Assembly (NCBI RefSeq): GCF_035917335.1
Contig: NZ_CP109067.1
Coordinates: forward strand, 1,304,501 to 1,368,500
DNA length: 64,000 nt
DNA from: Micromonospora sp. NBC_01813
Lineage (GTDB): Bacteria; Actinomycetota; Actinomycetes; Mycobacteriales; Micromonosporaceae
Reading direction: 5' to 3'
The notes beneath the pieces are model-generated. The model did not search any database, was not told the origin of the DNA, and saw nothing but the letters and a program-made list of their open reading frames with translations. Made by a program: the position numbers and the translations under genes. Positions 1-7,646 of this stretch are shown here, piece by piece. The first letter of the stretch is position 1, and each line of letters begins with the position of its first letter.

Positions 1-773
1 GCCGGTGAGGATCGCAACCGTCGTCGGCCAGGCGTAGTTGACGGACACGCCGTAGGCTGCACCGGGCCCCGACGGCCGGTGAGGATCGCAACGTCGGCGG
101 CCGCCGTCAGCCGGTCGACGACGGTACGGCTGCACCGGGCCCCGACGGCCGGTGAGGATCGCAACACGCCGTCACACCGGCTGTGGCAGCCGGGCTGGCA
201 TCAGCTGCACCGGGCCCCGACGGCCGGTGAGGATCGCAACTCGAAGTTGCCGGCCATCAGCACCAGGCCGGCGGTCGTGCTGCACCGGGCCCCGACGGCC
301 GGTGAGGATCGCAACATCGACGTACCCCCAATCTGATCATGTCGACGCGCTGCGCTGCACCGGGCCCCGACGGCCGGTGAGGATCGCAACACGGCTGGTG
401 CGCCGCAGATGTCAGGCGTCACCGGTAGCTGCACCGGGCCCCGACGGCCGGTGAGGATCGCAACGAGCGCGTCACCGGCGACCTGGCCCGCTGGCGGCTC
501 GGCTGCACCGGGCCCCGACGGCCGGTGAGGATCGCAACGGCTCGGGTGCCGGCGCGATGTCCGGCCGGCTGTCCGGGCTGCACCGGGCCCCGACGGCCGG
601 TGAGGATCGCAACATCCACCCTGCCGCGCCGAGCAGCACGGCGCCAGTCAGGCTGCACCGGGCCCCGACGGCCGGTGAGGATCGCAACCTGCTCTAGGGC
701 ACGCTCCAGTGTGGTCAAGGACCATGGCTGCACCGGGCCCCGACGGCCGGTGAGGATCGCAACTTGGACGTCA
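1..773 (+). CRISPR. CRISPR array, left segment (10 full repeats plus one edge-truncated repeat)
   Basis: The unit is a 37-bp repeat that begins GCTGCACCGGGC and ends GGATCGCAAC. Full repeats start at 56, 129, 204, 279, 354, 428, 502, 577, 652 and 727; bases 1-18 are the tail of another repeat cut by the window edge. Intact spacers here are 36-38 bp and all differ. Within the repeat, CCGGGCC can pair with GGCCGG around a CCGAC loop with one bulged G, giving a crRNA-precursor hairpin followed by a 3' ATCGCAAC tag. Repeat and spacer length exclude the 28-29-bp type I-E form; the subtype cannot be set without cas genes. The last spacer begins at 764 and is interrupted after 773 by an insertion sequence. 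Confidence 0.98.
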
Positions 774-798
774 GAGGCCGGTTCGCTAGGTCTTGTCC
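774..798 (+). repeat. Left terminal inverted repeat of the IS element
   Basis: Starts GAGGCCGGTTCG and matches the reverse complement of 2101-2125 at 17 of 25 positions. The TCA immediately to its left (771-773) is repeated immediately right of the other end. Confidence 0.85.
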
Positions 799-873
799 AT
801 TGTGGGTTGATCTGATCGTGCGGATGTGAGCGGTGGTCGTAACCGGTGAGGACGTGACCGCGTTGGGTCGATC

Positions 874-1704
874 ATGGGTGAACGCGCGGCGTATCCGAGT
901 GACCTGACCGACGAGCAGTGGGCGGTGATCGGACCGTTCCTGCAGGCGTGGAAGGCCCGCCACCCGTCGGTGTCCGGGCATCAGGGCCGCTACGAGCTGC
1001 GGGAGATCGTGAACGCGATCTTCTACCAGAACCGGACCGGCTGTCAGTGGGCGTACCTGCCACACGACCTGCCGCCGAAGTCCGCGACGTACTACTACTT
1101 CGCCCGGTGGCGTGACGACGGCACCGACCAGGTCGTCCACGACCTGCTGCGGTGCCAGGCACGGGAGAAGGCCGGCCGTACCGAGGACCCGACCGCGGTG
1201 GTGCTGGACACCCAGTCGGTCCGCGTGGCCAACAATGTGCCCGCCGCGACGACCGGCAAGGACGCCGCCAAGAAGGTGCCGGGGCGTAAACGGGGCCTCG
1301 CCGTGGACGCGTTGGGGCTGGTCATCGCGGTCGTGGTCACCGCCGCGTCGGTCACCGACAACGCCATCGGCATCCGGCTGCTCGACCAGGTCGTCGCGCA
1401 CACCCCCACCGTGACCCGCGCATGGGTCGACGCAGGGTTCAAACAGGACATGGCGCTGCACGGCGCCCTGGTCGGCGTCGACGTCGAGGTCGTCAAACGC
1501 TCCGACACCCGGCCCGGGTTCGTACCGGTCCGCAGACGCTGGATCGTCGAACAGACCCTCGGCACCCTGATGCTGCACCGCCGTCTCGTCCGCGAGTACG
1601 AGAGCCGACCGGAGTCCAGCGCGTCACGCACCTGGTGGGCGTCCACCGCGAACCTGGTCCGCCGACTGACCGGCACCAGCACACCCACCTGGCGGCAGCG
1701 GTGA
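874..1704 (+). CDS. IS5-family DDE transposase
   Basis: A 276-residue transposase that should cut and rejoin the ends of the surrounding 1352-bp element. The N-terminal part (YPSDLTDEQW, then RTGCQW about residues 54-59) is the typical IS5 family start (DUF4096-like region). The candidate catalytic triad is D112 in VLDTQS, D186 in AWVDAGF and E226 in WIVEQT. The gene looks intact, with no frameshift. Its TGA stop (1702-1704) overlaps the GTG start of the next ORF (1701), which suggests translational coupling. The start at 874 is the first ATG in frame; no strong ribosome-binding site precedes it. Confidence 0.93.
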   Translation: MGERAAYPSDLTDEQWAVIGPFLQAWKARHPSVSGHQGRYELREIVNAIFYQNRTGCQWAYLPHDLPPKSATYYYFARWRDDGTDQVVHDLLRCQAREKAGRTEDPTAVVLDTQSVRVANNVPAATTGKDAAKKVPGRKRGLAVDALGLVIAVVVTAASVTDNAIGIRLLDQVVAHTPTVTRAWVDAGFKQDMALHGALVGVDVEVVKRSDTRPGFVPVRRRWIVEQTLGTLMLHRRLVREYESRPESSASRTWWASTANLVRRLTGTSTPTWRQR

Positions 1705-2108
1705 ACCTCACCACGGTCCTCGACCTGATCGCCCACCAGGAGGCCACCGCCGGCCAGACAGCCGACCGGCTACGCGAGCAGATCGCCACACTCACCGCCG
1801 AACTCGGCCGCGTCGACAGCGAACTGGCCGCCCTGGCGACCACCCGCACCACGCTGCGCACGCTCGCCGCCGCCGAGTTCACCGCCGACGACCCGACGAT
1901 CGCCAGCACCCCCTACCAGCAGATCCTGGAAGTCCTCGCCGCCACACCCTCCGGGATGCGGGCGAAGGGCATCTGCCTCGCGCTCGGCGTCGAGCCCTCA
2001 CCGAAGCACGTCGAAGGCACCCGCGCGAAGCTCAAACGGATGGTCAACCGCCGGGTCCTCACCGAAGACGAACCCGGAGTGTTCACTCTCGCCCCGAAAA
2101 GGACGTAA
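1701..2108 (+). CDS. IS-encoded accessory protein, unknown function
   Basis: A 135-residue protein whose GTG start overlaps the transposase stop in a GTGA arrangement. Residues about 15-60 are rich in A, E, Q, R, L and T in a heptad-like pattern and probably form a coiled coil. The C-terminal half (about 75-135) looks like a small winged-helix or helix-turn-helix fold: QQILEVLAATPSGMRAKGI, then VEGTRAKLKRMVNRRVL, then an EPGVFTLA wing. It ends 17 bp inside the right end of the element, so it belongs to the IS and not to the CRISPR locus. A DNA-binding or regulatory role in transposition is an inference only. Confidence 0.75.
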   Translation: MNLTTVLDLIAHQEATAGQTADRLREQIATLTAELGRVDSELAALATTRTTLRTLAAAEFTADDPTIASTPYQQILEVLAATPSGMRAKGICLALGVEPSPKHVEGTRAKLKRMVNRRVLTEDEPGVFTLAPKRT

Positions 2109-2125
2109 TCTTCCGAACTGCCCTC
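2101..2125 (-). repeat. Right terminal inverted repeat of the IS element
   Basis: Read on the minus strand it starts GAGGGCAGTTCGG and pairs with the left end at 774-798. It overlaps the last codons of the accessory ORF. TCA at 2126-2128 is the second copy of the target duplication. Confidence 0.85.
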
Positions 2126-5100
2126 TCAGGTCACGCTGTCGTCCGCGCTGGCCCGCTGCACCGGGCCCCGACGGCCGGTGAGGATCGCAACTGTCCTTCG
2201 TAGACTTGGGGAGCCGTACGAGGATGCGCTGCACCGGGCCCCGACGGCCGGTGAGGATCGCAACGACCGTGCCCGGAAGATTGGTGCCGTCCGCGACCGT
2301 GCTGCACCGAGCCCCGACGGCCGGTGAGGATCGCAACAACGCGATGGTAGCTCTCAACACATTCTTGGCGGTGCTGCACCGGGCCCCGACGGCCGGTGAG
2401 GATCGCAACCCTCCCGCCTCCACCATCCCGCGTGCTCACACCACGCGCTGCACCGGGCCCCGACGGCCGGTGAGGATCGCAACGACTGCTCAGGCCTGGC
2501 GGTCTACGCGATCCGGCAGGGCTGCACCGGGCCCCGACGGCCGGTGAGGATCGCAACGGGGCACCGAAAGGATAGTGCGACCCGTGCGAGTTGCTGCACC
2601 GGGCCCCGACGGCCGGTGAGGATCGCAACGCTGAGCGGCCCATGAAGAGCACCTCGCCCAGGGCGGGCTGCACCGGGCCCCGACGGCCGGTGAGGATCGC
2701 AACTCCGGGTCGGCGGGTGGCTTTGCGGCGGTGTCGGCGAGCTGCACCGGGCCCCGACGGCCGGTGAGGATCGCAACTCAGGTGGCCGCCGCCGTACCGT
2801 CCAGCGCGCGGTGGGCTGCACCGGGCCCCGACGGCCGGTGAGGATCGCAACGTCCTCGCTGCGCGTGTCTGGGGTTGAGGTGGGGGGCTGCACCGGGCCC
2901 CGACGGCCGGTGAGGATCGCAACGGTTGGGGGACTGCGGTGCTCCCCAGTGGCACCGGCGCGCTGCACCGGGCCCCGACGGCCGGTGAGGATCGCAACAC
3001 GCGTGGGACCGCAGGGCTTCCTACCTCGCCAGTCGCTGCACCGGGCCCCGACGGCCGGTGAGGATCGCAACGCCCTGTTCGAGGTCTTCGTCATCGGCCA
3101 GATCTTGTGCTGCACCGGGCCCCGACGGCCGGTGAGGATCGCAACGCCGCCGCATCCAGTGGTGCTGCTGCGATCGACGCTGGCTGCACCGGGCCCCGAC
3201 GGCCGGTGAGGATCGCAACCTCGGCCTCGTCACCGCGTTCGGGCTCGACCTGACCGGGCTGCACCGGGCCCCGACGGCCGGTGAGGATCGCAACTAAGGC
3301 TATGCCACAGAGACTTGGGTCATGACACAGCTGCACCGGGCCCCGACGGCCGGTGAGGATCGCAACCACGACCAGAGGAGGAGTCTTGACCACACCACCT
3401 ACCGAGCTGCACCGGGCCCCGACGGCCGGTGAGGATCGCAACCAGCGACACCACCGACAGCGTGCCCTGCGGGATGAAAGCTGCACCGGGCCCCGACGGC
3501 CGGTGAGGATCGCAACGTCGGGCTTCGGTACGGCGTCGCTGACCACGCCGGTCGCTGCACCGGGCCCCGACGGCCGGTGAGGATCGCAACTGCGCGTGCT
3601 GAATCACGACGCTGCCGGCGGTGGCACCGCTGCACCGGGCCCCGACGGCCGGTGAGGATCGCAACCGGCTTGGCAACCCCACACGTCGGGATCTGTTCGA
3701 GGCTGCACCGGGCCCCGACGGCCGGTGAGGATCGCAACGGCCGCGCGTCCGGTGGCATCGTCGGCGCCGATCATGCTGCACCGGGCCCCGACGGCCGGTG
3801 AGGATCGCAACTCCGTGTCGGCGATCTTGTTGTCGAGGGCGGCCAACCGCTGCACCGGGCCCCGACGGCCGGTGAGGATCGCAACAACGACAACACGTTG
3901 GAGACCGTACGCAAGATGGAGGAGCTGCACCGGGCCCCGACGGCCGGTGAGGATCGCAACGGCCAGAGGACACAGGACAGCGCGTACGCGAGCAGGCTGC
4001 ACCGGGCCCCGACGGCCGGTGAGGATCGCAACGGAACGGTCCGCGTCAGCAGCACCGACACCGCCAGGTCGCTGCACCGGGCCCCGACGGCCGGTGAGGA
4101 TCGCAACGGATCCCGATCCGGCGGAGCGGATGCGTCCTGCCGGATGCTGCACCGGGCCCCGACGGCCGGTGAGGATCGCAACAGCGGCGAGCGCGAAGGC
4201 GACGGGGGAGCCGTTCCGGTGCTGCACCGGGCCCCGACGGCCGGTGAGGATCGCAACGTCCTCGCTGCGCGTGTCTGGGGTTGAGGTGGGGGGCTGCACC
4301 GGGCCCCGACGGCCGGTGAGGATCGCAACACCGACGTCGAATGGAAGCCGTGGGTGTCGATCTCGCTGCACCGGGCCCCGACGGCCGGTGAGGATCGCAA
4401 CACCGAGTCGGAGCAGGTAGCGATCATGGCCGGGCCGAGCTGCACCGGGCCCCGACGGCCGGTGAGGATCGCAACTCGCATCAGGTCGTGGATCAGCCTC
4501 GCCCAGGCTGTTTGCTGCACCGGGCCCCGACGGCCGGTGAGGATCGCAACACAAGAAGAAGCCGCTGGTGGCCGAAACCATCCGGCGGGCTGCACCGGGC
4601 CCCGACGGCCGGTGAGGATCGCAACGCCGACGGCGGCATCAGCTGGTCCGGCCTCCACTGGTGCTGCACCGGGCCCCGACGGCCGGTGAGGATCGCAACA
4701 CCGCCGCGTACGACGATGGCGCATACGAGCTGGCCCGCTGCACCGGGCCCCGACGGCCGGTGAGGATCGCAACTCGTACCGCCGAGTCCCGGCAGGCAGA
4801 CGCCGATTTCGCTGCACCGGGCCCCGACGGCCGGTGAGGATCGCAACGTCGAGACCTGCGCCGCGCTGCGCCGCCTGGCCGCGCTGCACCGGGCCCCGAC
4901 GGCCGGTGAGGATCGCAACCCACCACCGGGCAGTGCTGGCGAGCCAACGCGCCCGGTCGCTGCACCGGGCCCCGACGGCCGGTGAGGATCGCAACGTCGA
5001 AGTCGCGGTCGAACCGGATCGCGTCGCAGTCCCGCTGCACCGGGCCCCGACGGCCGGTGAGGATCGCAACAGTCTCGAATTGTCGAAACGGATCTCTGGG

Positions 5101-5520
5101 CTCCAACGAGCTGCACCGGGCCCCGACGGCCGGTGAGGATCGCAACTGCGTCGGGTCGAACGCGTTCGTCGTCTCCTGCGCCGGCTGCACCGGGCCCCGA
5201 CGGCCGGTGAGGATCGCAACGCGGGCATGGTGATCTCCTCGGGTCGCACCGTCGAGTAGATGCTGCACCGGGCCCCGACGGCCGGTGAGGATCGCACAAC
5301 TGGGCGGCCGTCCACGCGGTCGTCTCGACGACGTACCGCTGCACCGGGCCCCGACGGCCGGTGAGGATCGCAACCTGCTGACGCTGGAGGCCCAGTCGCG
5401 GCCACGGATGGGCTGCACCGGGCCCCGGGCCGGTGAGGATCGCAACAGCGCCTTGGGTCGCCGCCTTGGATCGACCGTCATCAGCTGCACCGGGCCCCGA
5501 CGGCCGGTGAGGATCGCAAC
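2126..5520 (+). CRISPR. CRISPR array, right segment (46 repeats), ending at the trailer end
   Basis: Same 37-bp repeat as the left segment, at 46 positions from 2155 to a last copy at 5484-5520, with 45 spacers of 35-41 bp. The piece before the first repeat (2129-2154) is the right half of the spacer split by the IS. Three repeats are imperfect: 2301-2337 has A for G at position 10, 5262-5300 has two extra bases near its 3' end (GATCGCACAAC), and 5412-5446 lacks two bases in the middle. Two of these lie in the last four repeats, which marks the right side as the older end. The spacer at 2852-2886 is identical to the one at 4258-4292. No repeat follows 5520. Confidence 0.98.
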
Positions 5521-5894
5521 GCCCGGTGAAGCATCATCTGCGGCCGTCGCAAGGAGCTCGCGCCCGAGGCGAGCTCCTGTGGCATCGACGCTGCGCCGGC
5601 CTCCGTGTTCGGCGAGGATGACGACGTCACGATGCCCGGGTCGAGTGCCGGCGATCGCACGCAGGCTGCACCCGTACCCGAGCAGTTCCTACCCTGCGTT
5701 CGCGCGTTCCTTGCTCGCCTCGGCGAAATCGTCGGCCGGAGACCGGAAGTGATCGCGGCGTTGCGCCCGAATGCCTGGTGGGGGCCGGGCTGACCGTCGG
5801 GTGGCCGGCGCGCGCCGTGGCGGTGCGGCTGGGGCGGTATGCCGGTCGGTATCTTTGCTGATTGGGCGGTCCCGCCGCCCAGACCGGGGGACCC
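5521..5894. other. Intergenic region between CRISPR array and ABC exporter
   Basis: About 370 bp without a convincing gene. It contains a strong hairpin at 5552-5578 just after the array. A 62-codon open frame at 5605-5793 has no recognisable motif or good ribosome-binding site and is probably chance. The stretch before 5895 should hold the exporter promoter; I could not identify a clear -10/-35 pair. A GGGGGAC stretch lies just upstream of the ATG at 5895. Confidence 0.6.
5552..5578 (+). terminator. Hairpin at the end of the CRISPR array, probable terminator
   Basis: A perfect 10-bp inverted repeat, AGGAGCTCGC and GCGAGCTCCT, around a 7-base loop, 31 bp after the last CRISPR repeat. It has no T tract, which is common for terminators of high-GC actinobacteria. 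It would stop the pre-crRNA transcript coming from the left. The role is inferred from position and structure. Confidence 0.6.
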
Positions 5895-7646
5895 ATGCTG
5901 ATCAGACTTCTGCGGCGCCACCTGCGACCCTACGGCCGGCCGATCGCCATCGTGGTGCTGCTGCAACTCGTCGGCACGATCGCCTCGCTCTACCTGCCCA
6001 GTCTCAACGGCGACCTCATCGACCGGGGCATCGCCGTCGGGGACACCGGGCACATTCTGCGGGTCGGCGGCTGGATGCTGGTCGTCACCGCCATCCAGAT
6101 CGGCTGCTCCATCGCCGCCGTCTTCTACGGTGCGCGTACCGCGATGGCGTTCGGTCGTGACGTGCGCTCGGCGGTCTTCCACCAGGTCGGGCGGTTCTCC
6201 GCGCGGGAGGTCGGCCAGTTCGGCGCGCCCTCGCTGATCACCCGCACCACCAACGACGTCCAGCAGGTGCAGATGCTGGTCGTGCTCACGTTCACGATGC
6301 TGGTCGTCGCCCCGATCATGTGCGTCGGTGGCATCATCATGGCGTTGCGGGAGGACTTCGGGCTGTCCTGGCTGATGGTGGTCAGTGTGCCGGTCCTCGG
6401 CGTTGCGGTGAGTTTGATCGTGCGTCGGATGGTGCCGCTGTTCCGGGCGATGCAGACCAGGATCGACGCCGTCAACCGGGTGCTGCGTGAGCAGATCACC
6501 GGCGTACGGGTGGTGCGGGCGTTCGTGCGGGAGCCGTACGAGACCGAGCGCTTCGGCATCGCCAACGCGGAGCTGACCGCGACCGCGCTGCGGGCCGGCC
6601 GGCTGATGGCGTTGTTTTTCCCGGTGGTGATGTTGGTGTTGAACGTCTCCAGCGTGGCCGTGCTCTGGTTCGGTGCCGGTCGGGTCGACTCCGGGCAGAT
6701 CGAAATCGGCTCGCTGACCGCTTTCCTGAGCTACCTGATGCAGATCCTGATGTCGGTGATGATGGCGACGTTCATGCTGATGATGGTGCCCCGAGCGGCG
6801 GTCTCCGCCGAGCGGATCACCGAGGTTCTCGACACCGAGTCGTCGGTGCTGCCGCCCACCGGGCCGACGGCCGGTCCGGCACTGCCGGATGGGCAGCCGG
6901 TCCGCGCCGACCTGGAGTTCCGCGCGGTCACCTTCCAGTATCCGGGTGCGGCGGCACCGGTGCTGCGGGACATCACCCTGCGGGCGGGGGCCGGCACCAC
7001 CACCGCGATCATCGGTAGCACCGGCGCGGGCAAGACGACTCTGCTGTCGATGGTGCCCCGGCTCTTCGACGCCACCGCCGGGACGGTGCTCGTCGACGGG
7101 GTCGACGTCCGGGAGTTCGACCTGGACCTGCTGCGGCGTCGGATCGGGGTGGTGCCGCAGCGGCCGTACCTGTTCACCGGCACGGTCGCCAGCAACCTGC
7201 GGTACGGCCGACCGGAGGCCACCGACGAGGAGCTGTGGGCGGCGCTGGAGGTGGCGCAGGCCCGGGACTTCGTCGAGCGGATGCCCGGCGGCCTGGCCGC
7301 GTCGATCGCCCAGGGCGGCACCAACGTCTCCGGTGGTCAGCGACAACGGCTGGCGATCGCCCGCGCGGTGGTCCGAAGACCGGAGATCTACCTGTTCGAC
7401 GACTCGTTCTCCGCCCTCGATCTGGGCACCGATGCTCGGTTGCGGGCCGCGTTGCGGCCGGTCACCGTCGACGCCGCCGTCGTGATCGTCGCCCAGCGGG
7501 TTTCGACGATCATCGACGCCGACCAGATCGTCGTACTGGAGAACGGGGCGATCGTCGGTGTCGGCCGGCACGCCGAGCTGCTCGCCGACTGTCCCACGTA
7601 CGCCGAGATCGTGGCGTCCCAACTCACCGTGGGGGTGGGCGCGTGA
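5895..7646 (+). CDS. ABC exporter half-transporter, subunit 1
   Basis: A 583-residue multidrug or lipid exporter half of the MsbA/LmrCD type, acting in the cytoplasmic membrane. Residues about 1-300 are a six-helix transmembrane domain with the usual coupling region ([11 protein letters not shown]). The nucleotide-binding domain has Walker [10 protein letters not shown] (about 373-381), signature VSGGQRQ (about 477) and Walker B YLFDDSFS (about 498). Aspartate replaces the usual catalytic glutamate after Walker B, so this half contributes a degenerate ATP site, as is known for heterodimeric exporters. The ATG at 5895 is preferred over an in-frame start at 5862 because it follows GGGGGAC and begins directly at the first helix. 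The stop overlaps the GTG of the partner gene. Confidence 0.93.

What the first reader, a model, noticed from the sequence alone, without database searches (positions are those of the whole stretch)
764..2154. IS5-family element sits inside a CRISPR spacer and its excision restores a normal spacer
The element (774-2125) is flanked by a TCA duplication and by 25-bp imperfect inverted ends. Joining 764-773 with 2129-2154 gives a 36-bp spacer between two perfect repeats. The insertion splits the array: without read-through, the 46 repeats to the right would lose transcription from the leader. Whether the IS silences or, by its own promoter, keeps the distal array active is open.
Basis: partly seen in the sequence, partly recalled or inferred. 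Interest (0 to 1): 0.72.

Follow-up and report, generated by a model that had tools for sequence, protein, structure and literature searches.

The report
Jumping gene inside a CRISPR spacer
A small jumping gene appears to have landed recently inside one stored memory unit of an otherwise complete bacterial CRISPR immune array; this is a known kind of event, though this jumping gene carries a conserved extra gene whose role is unknown.

Summary
Confirmed. A 1,352-bp IS5-family element (774-2125) sits in spacer 37 of an 82-spacer type I-C array; leader and cas operon lie just left of the window. The ends hold: TCA duplication, inverted ends matching at 17/25, an identical second genomic copy, and same-genus copies with matching TNA flanks. 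Removing the element plus one TCA leaves a 36-bp spacer, within the array's 34-41 range. No empty site was found: the joined spacer occurs in 0 of 300 family genomes at up to 3 mismatches, and no second strain of the species was available. Silencing of the distal array is untested. The element's two genes run in the array's direction to 17 bp from its right end, with no terminator-like site, so I judge read-through likelier. IS insertion into CRISPR arrays is known (IS6110 in a repeat, a MITE in a spacer). Less expected is the element's second gene (long helix plus winged helix, overlapping the transposase by 4 nt), under purifying selection in related elements and present, diverged, in Streptomyces plasmids.

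The parts
1..763 (+). leader-proximal part of the type I-C array lying in the window (end of repeat 27 to repeat 37); repeats 1-26 lie left of the window in L008
   Evidence: all 37 proximal repeats identical to GCTGCACCGGGCCCCGACGGCCGGTGAGGATCGCAAC
764..773 (+). left piece of the interrupted spacer 37 (10 nt, includes TSD copy TCA 771-773)
771..773 (+). target-site duplication TCA, left copy
774..2125 (+). IS5-family insertion sequence, 1,352 bp
774..798 (+). left terminal inverted repeat
   Evidence: 17 of 25 positions match the right end
874..1704 (+). DDE transposase, 276 aa, open frame
   Evidence: DUF4096 and DDE_Tnp_1; IS5 family transposase
1701..2108 (+). ORF2, 135 aa; GTG start overlapping the transposase stop by 4 nt (start inferred: the frame is open further upstream, but relatives in L090 and L091 are annotated from the same place); long N-terminal helix plus winged helix
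   Evidence: frame listed as 1422-2108; dN/dS 0.32-0.62
2101..2125 (-). right terminal inverted repeat
2126..2128 (+). target-site duplication TCA, right copy
2129..2154 (+). right piece of the interrupted spacer 37 (26 nt)
2155..5520 (+). leader-distal part of the array, repeats 38-83 (43 of 46 perfect; repeat 40 one substitution, repeats 80 and 82 with indels)

Best explanation
An IS5-family element with a TNA target (IS1031-like) inserted, probably recently, into an existing spacer of a complete type I-C CRISPR array and duplicated TCA. Shown from sequence: the ends, the TSD, two open genes, an identical second copy, a complete set of cas genes and a leader on the left. Inferred: spacer 37 no longer gives its original crRNA; the other 81 spacers are uninterrupted; leader transcription, the element's own transposase transcript, or both read out of the element into repeats 38-83, where the repeats can still be processed. 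The insertion then costs one spacer plus some dosage of the distal ones. The confidence below is for the insertion; for the read-through part it is about 0.7.
For: Single array with perfect repeats on both sides and a 36-nt joined spacer. TNA duplications at other copies. 100% identity of two genomic copies over 1,352 bp, implying recent movement or gene conversion. Seven I-C cas genes in open frames: six match PADLOC profiles over nearly their full length, Cas4c over 20-198 of 229 (starts of cas5, cas4, cas1 and cas2 chosen by me). Leader of 126 bp between cas2 and repeat 1. Repeats with indels only at the far right, as expected for a trailer end. Transposase and ORF2 on the array's strand, ORF2 stop 17 bp from the element's end; 0 terminator-like sites at 700-2260 against 0.9 +/- 1.0 in shuffles; RNA at the right end folds less well than most shuffles (z 1.72).
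Against: No uninterrupted allele: 0 of 300 family genomes; 0 exact hits to a 27-nt core of the joined spacer in viral contigs. No sigma-70-type promoter-like site at 700-2260 either (0 found, 0.1 expected), so an element-borne promoter is not shown. The terminator scan sees only hairpins with T runs, and Rho-dependent termination cannot be judged. The second genomic copy has mismatched flanks TTA/TCA.
Confidence: 0.9

Rival explanations
1. The insertion silences the 46 distal repeats: leader transcription ends inside the 1.35-kb element, and the distal spacers are dead memory.
For: Repeat 38 now lies 4.1 kb from the leader, and no promoter-like site was found in the element.
Against: Element genes run in the array's direction and are open to 17 bp from its end; no terminator-like site; 43 of 46 distal repeats still perfect, although a recent insertion would leave them so in any case.
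Confidence: 0.25
2. The insertion was selected because spacer 37 (or the distal array) was self-targeting or blocked a useful mobile element; the IS relieved the conflict, as reported for IS insertions in cas genes (PMC10359306, passages seen).
For: General precedent only.
Against: The joined spacer has no match with up to 3 mismatches in its own genome or in 299 other family genomes, and its 27-nt core has no exact match in viral contigs. An insertion that spares 81 spacers and the cas genes would be a poor escape route. The other 81 spacers were not tested for self-targets.
Confidence: 0.05
3. Assembly artefact: the two identical IS copies caused a wrong join.
For: Two identical 1,352-bp copies exist; the other copy has unmatched flanks.
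Against: The same repeat continues on both sides with a matching TSD and a joined spacer of normal length; a swap between the copies would put array on one side only.
Confidence: 0.03

Closest known systems
IS6110 (IS3 family) in the DR/CRISPR locus of Mycobacterium tuberculosis (PMC7820667, passages seen, among them parts of the abstract)
   Same: IS splits one array in two, 3-bp duplication, ancestral array rebuilt by joining the flanks
   Different: IS6110 cut a repeat, not a spacer; type III-A system; different IS family; many strains available to confirm it
MITE HqIRS37 inside a spacer of Haloquadratum walsbyi HBSQ001 (PMC3119063, passages seen)
   Same: mobile element inside a spacer; the ancestral spacer inferred by removing it
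   Different: a MITE; that strain has no cas genes, here a full set lies beside the array
IS insertions into cas genes (PMC10359306, passages seen)
   Same: IS hitting a CRISPR-Cas locus
   Different: here a spacer is hit and the cas genes are open
IS5 family, IS1031-like group
   Same: DUF4096 plus DDE transposase, NCBIfam IS5 model, three-base target site
   Different: extra downstream gene overlapping the transposase by 4 nt; a single ORF and a three-nucleotide target are named as common features of the IS1031 group in PMC2516522 (passage seen), and IS427-group ORF pairs are described as frameshift pairs in PMC3281130 (passage seen)

Membership tests
IS5 family | transposase matches the family model above its curated cut-off | tested here: met
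   NF033580 154.7 bits, cut-off 110; PF13340 and PF01609 above cut-offs
IS5 family | terminal inverted repeats at the ends | tested here: met
   17 of 25, same ends in same-genus copies
IS1031 group of IS5 | three-base target duplication (three nucleotides in PMC2516522; the form TNA is recalled) | tested here: met
   identical TNA flanks in 4 of 6 genus copies by BLAST ends, a fifth if L040 is read two bases further; the sixth is TTA/TCA
IS1031 group of IS5 | single ORF | tested here: not met
   conserved second ORF inside the element
IS1031 group of IS5 | placement by ISfinder comparison | not testable with these tools
   ISfinder is not available; filed only as IS5 family
Type I-C CRISPR-Cas | cas3-cas5c-cas8c-cas7c-cas4-cas1-cas2 with an adjacent array | tested here: met
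   seven PADLOC matches, six nearly full length, Cas4c 20-198 of 229; array
Type I-C CRISPR-Cas | active interference or crRNA production | not testable with these tools
   no RNA or phage-challenge data

The most novel reading that the evidence does not exclude
The element is a portable internal promoter for CRISPR memory: its transposase-ORF2 transcript runs out of the right end and supplies pre-crRNA for the 46 distal repeats, and ORF2, a coiled-coil winged-helix protein made from the same transcript, regulates that promoter, so old spacers come under the control of a transposon.
Probability: 0.08. Interest if true: 0.6.

Novelty: new member of a known kind. Interest (0 to 1): 0.27.

Why it matters
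It is a clean natural experiment: one array, one co-directional IS at spacer 37 of 82, cas genes open. It lets one ask how far leader transcription reaches through a transposon and whether IS transcripts can feed crRNA production. Separately, it points to a conserved but unnamed second gene in an actinobacterial IS5 lineage.

Tried and rejected
Protospacers by BLAST in phages: the distal array gave only weak matches (24 records, best E 0.08 at a limit of 1). L008:18066-20000 (spacers 1-26) gave one 35-nt, 91% match in Mycobacterium phage DudeLittle at spacer 16 (E 4e-3 at a limit of 0.01), a lead only; window 56-763 (spacers 28-36) gave none (limit 0.01). Spacer 27 and the joined spacer 37 were not put to this search. 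Plasmids, distal array only: 10 records, 9 Thermus at 65-68% over stretches without a listed gene, which I read as repeat matches, and one Nonomuraea piece. Viral contigs, exact cores of two spacers only (joined spacer 37, and the spacer found at 47 and 66): none.

Same-genus arrays: 446 bp of the distal array matched in 4 of 7 genomes, the own included. G001 and G005 match at 64-75% (one 42-bp piece at 86%), which I read as repeat similarity; G002 has one weak match. Spacers were not compared one by one.

Self-targeting of the other 81 spacers was not tested. ISfinder could not be searched.

ORF2 as a chance frame: rejected, because dN/dS is 0.32-0.62 in 13 comparisons that are not independent. 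Dropped before that count: copies with a broken transposase or a cut (L011, L014, the second element in L017, L022, L023, L031, L035, L045) and the shorter matches L024-L030 and L032; L019 was kept, with its transposase compared over 182 aa only. ORF2 as the frameshifted second half of the transposase: rejected, because the DDE frame is complete without it. ORF2 as a known family: Pfam and NCBIfam gave nothing at the curated cut-offs and PHROGs nothing below E 0.09; Foldseek gave mainly general winged-helix matches, none at E <= 0.001.

Full report
Where it is. The window is G000:C1:1304501-1368500 of a 7.63-Mb single-contig genome. Named records with ORF2 relatives belong to Micromonospora, Verrucosispora, Plantactinospora, Salinispora and Actinoplanes, all Micromonosporaceae as I recall; the species itself was not identified. 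Just left of the window lies a type I-C set, cas3-cas5c-cas8c-cas7c-cas4-cas1-cas2 (L008:10187-17939). All seven frames are open; six match PADLOC profiles over nearly their full length, Cas4c over 20-198 of 229; the starts of cas5, cas4, cas1 and cas2 were chosen by me. A 126-bp leader (L008:17940-18065) and the array follow, so the array is read left to right.

The array. It has 83 repeats and 82 spacers. All 37 repeats left of the element are identical; 43 of 46 on the right are, repeat 40 having one substitution and repeats 80 and 82 indels near the right end. Spacers are 34-41 nt (spacer 37 counted as joined). A pattern search of the whole genome with 29 bases of the repeat, up to 2 mismatches, gave 82 matches, all here; repeat 82 falls outside that pattern.

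The element. 774-2125, 1,352 bp, TCA on both sides, ends matching at 17 of 25 positions (4 of 20,000 random window pairs do as well). A second copy, 100% identical over its full length, lies at C1:4859935-4861286 but is flanked by TTA and TCA. In the 7 genus genomes searched (own included), four further copies over the whole or nearly the whole length occur in two genomes (94-98% identity). Three have matching TNA flanks by BLAST ends (TGA/TGA, TGA/TGA, TCA/TCA). The fourth, L040, aligned to base 1350, has TGA on both sides if its end is read two bases past the alignment edge. This fixes the ends and a three-base TNA target. The transposase (874-1704) is an IS5-family DDE enzyme above curated cut-offs. 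The IS1031-like grouping rests on the three-base target and on recall, not on ISfinder.

What the insertion did. Removing the element and one TCA leaves a 36-nt spacer between perfect repeats 37 and 38. That is what simple insertion into a spacer predicts, but the empty allele itself was not seen: 0 of 300 family genomes hold the joined spacer at up to 3 mismatches, and only one genome per species is held. The own genome was among the 300, so the same search shows no self-target for this spacer.

Does it silence the distal array? Transposase and ORF2 run in the array's direction and stop 17 bp before the element's end. No terminator-like or sigma-70-like site was found at 700-2260, and RNA at the right end folds less well than most shuffles (193 of 200 fold at least as well). 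I judge read-through, from the leader or the transposase transcript, likelier than silencing (about 70:25), but nothing here measures transcription. An outward promoter has been shown for another IS5 group (IS903; PMC3281130, passages seen), not for this element.

ORF2. The element carries a second gene (1701-2108, 135 aa) whose GTG start overlaps the transposase stop as GTGA. The frame is open further upstream, so the start is inferred from conservation and from annotated relatives. Of 14 elements examined, the window's included, 13 have this 4-nt overlap; the exception (L019) has a transposase frame that ends at 182 aa. dN/dS against the window copy is 0.32-0.62 for ORF2 and 0.19-0.25 for the transposase in 13 comparisons that are not independent, so ORF2 is a real protein under purifying selection, weaker than on the transposase. 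Copies dropped before this count are named in Tried and rejected.

A search with ORF2 in named genomes gave 22 loci. A transposase relative lies beside it in 14 of 22; of the other 8, four matches begin at or near a contig end (L025, L028-L030) and four are partial or solitary (L024, L026, L027, L032). In plasmids, 60 records have an ORF2 relative, 56 of them Streptomyces, all below 60% identity (20 rows seen, 37-45%). Of the 15 records listed for the transposase (of 875), 8 have an ORF2 relative directly downstream by the coordinates. In two annotated ones the pair overlaps by 4 nt and the second gene is a hypothetical protein (L090, L091). In L091 the pair lies between inverted ends; if these are placed by analogy at GTGGG, the flanks are TAA and TCA. 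In 396 phylum genomes 5 had a match, the own included. The other four belong to one genus and match the C-terminal part; of their 10 loci, 9 have a transposase relative nearby, two of these weakly (E 1.7e-5 and 0.001), and in at least one (L085) the two genes converge.

AlphaFold2 gives a 60-residue helix and a winged helix (mean pLDDT 87.6, pTM 0.50), and Foldseek mainly general winged-helix matches. A DNA-binding regulator of the element or a transposase partner is the likeliest role (inference). Three searches of the paper library (of which 71 found nothing; listings only, plus passages of two listed papers) brought up no description of such a gene, which is not proof that it is undescribed.

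Known or new. IS insertion into CRISPR arrays is established: IS6110 within a repeat of the M. tuberculosis DR locus (PMC7820667, passages), a MITE within a spacer of Haloquadratum walsbyi, with the spacer reconstructed (PMC3119063, passages), and IS insertions in cas genes (PMC10359306, passages). The finding is a well-defined new example. Score low to moderate.

Noticed in passing
window 1701-2108; L090:2346-2744; L091:2346-2762: Conserved second gene of this IS5 lineage, long helix plus winged helix, 4-nt overlap with the transposase, no family above cut-off in Pfam or NCBIfam and nothing significant in PHROGs.
   Followed up: yes
window 2852-2886 and 4258-4292: Spacers 47 and 66 are identical (35 nt) while their neighbours differ: repeated acquisition or recombination.
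   Followed up: partly
L008 about 3029-5990: A second array on the same strand, upstream of the cas genes, with a 37-nt repeat sharing both ends but a stronger hairpin stem (e.g. an A-U pair replaced by G-C), perhaps served by the same Cas proteins.
   Followed up: partly
L008:17940-18065: The leader folds unusually well (z -3.07), with a hairpin directly after the cas2 stop that may separate operon from array.
   Followed up: no
L009:7936-9287: Second identical IS copy with unmatched flanks TTA/TCA, next to another element with a 54% identical transposase: possibly an adjacent deletion or recombination.
   Followed up: partly
L090:1-914: On a Streptomyces plasmid an IS256-family transposase is also followed by a small hypothetical gene with a 4-nt overlap; its sequence does not look like ORF2 by eye.
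   Followed up: no
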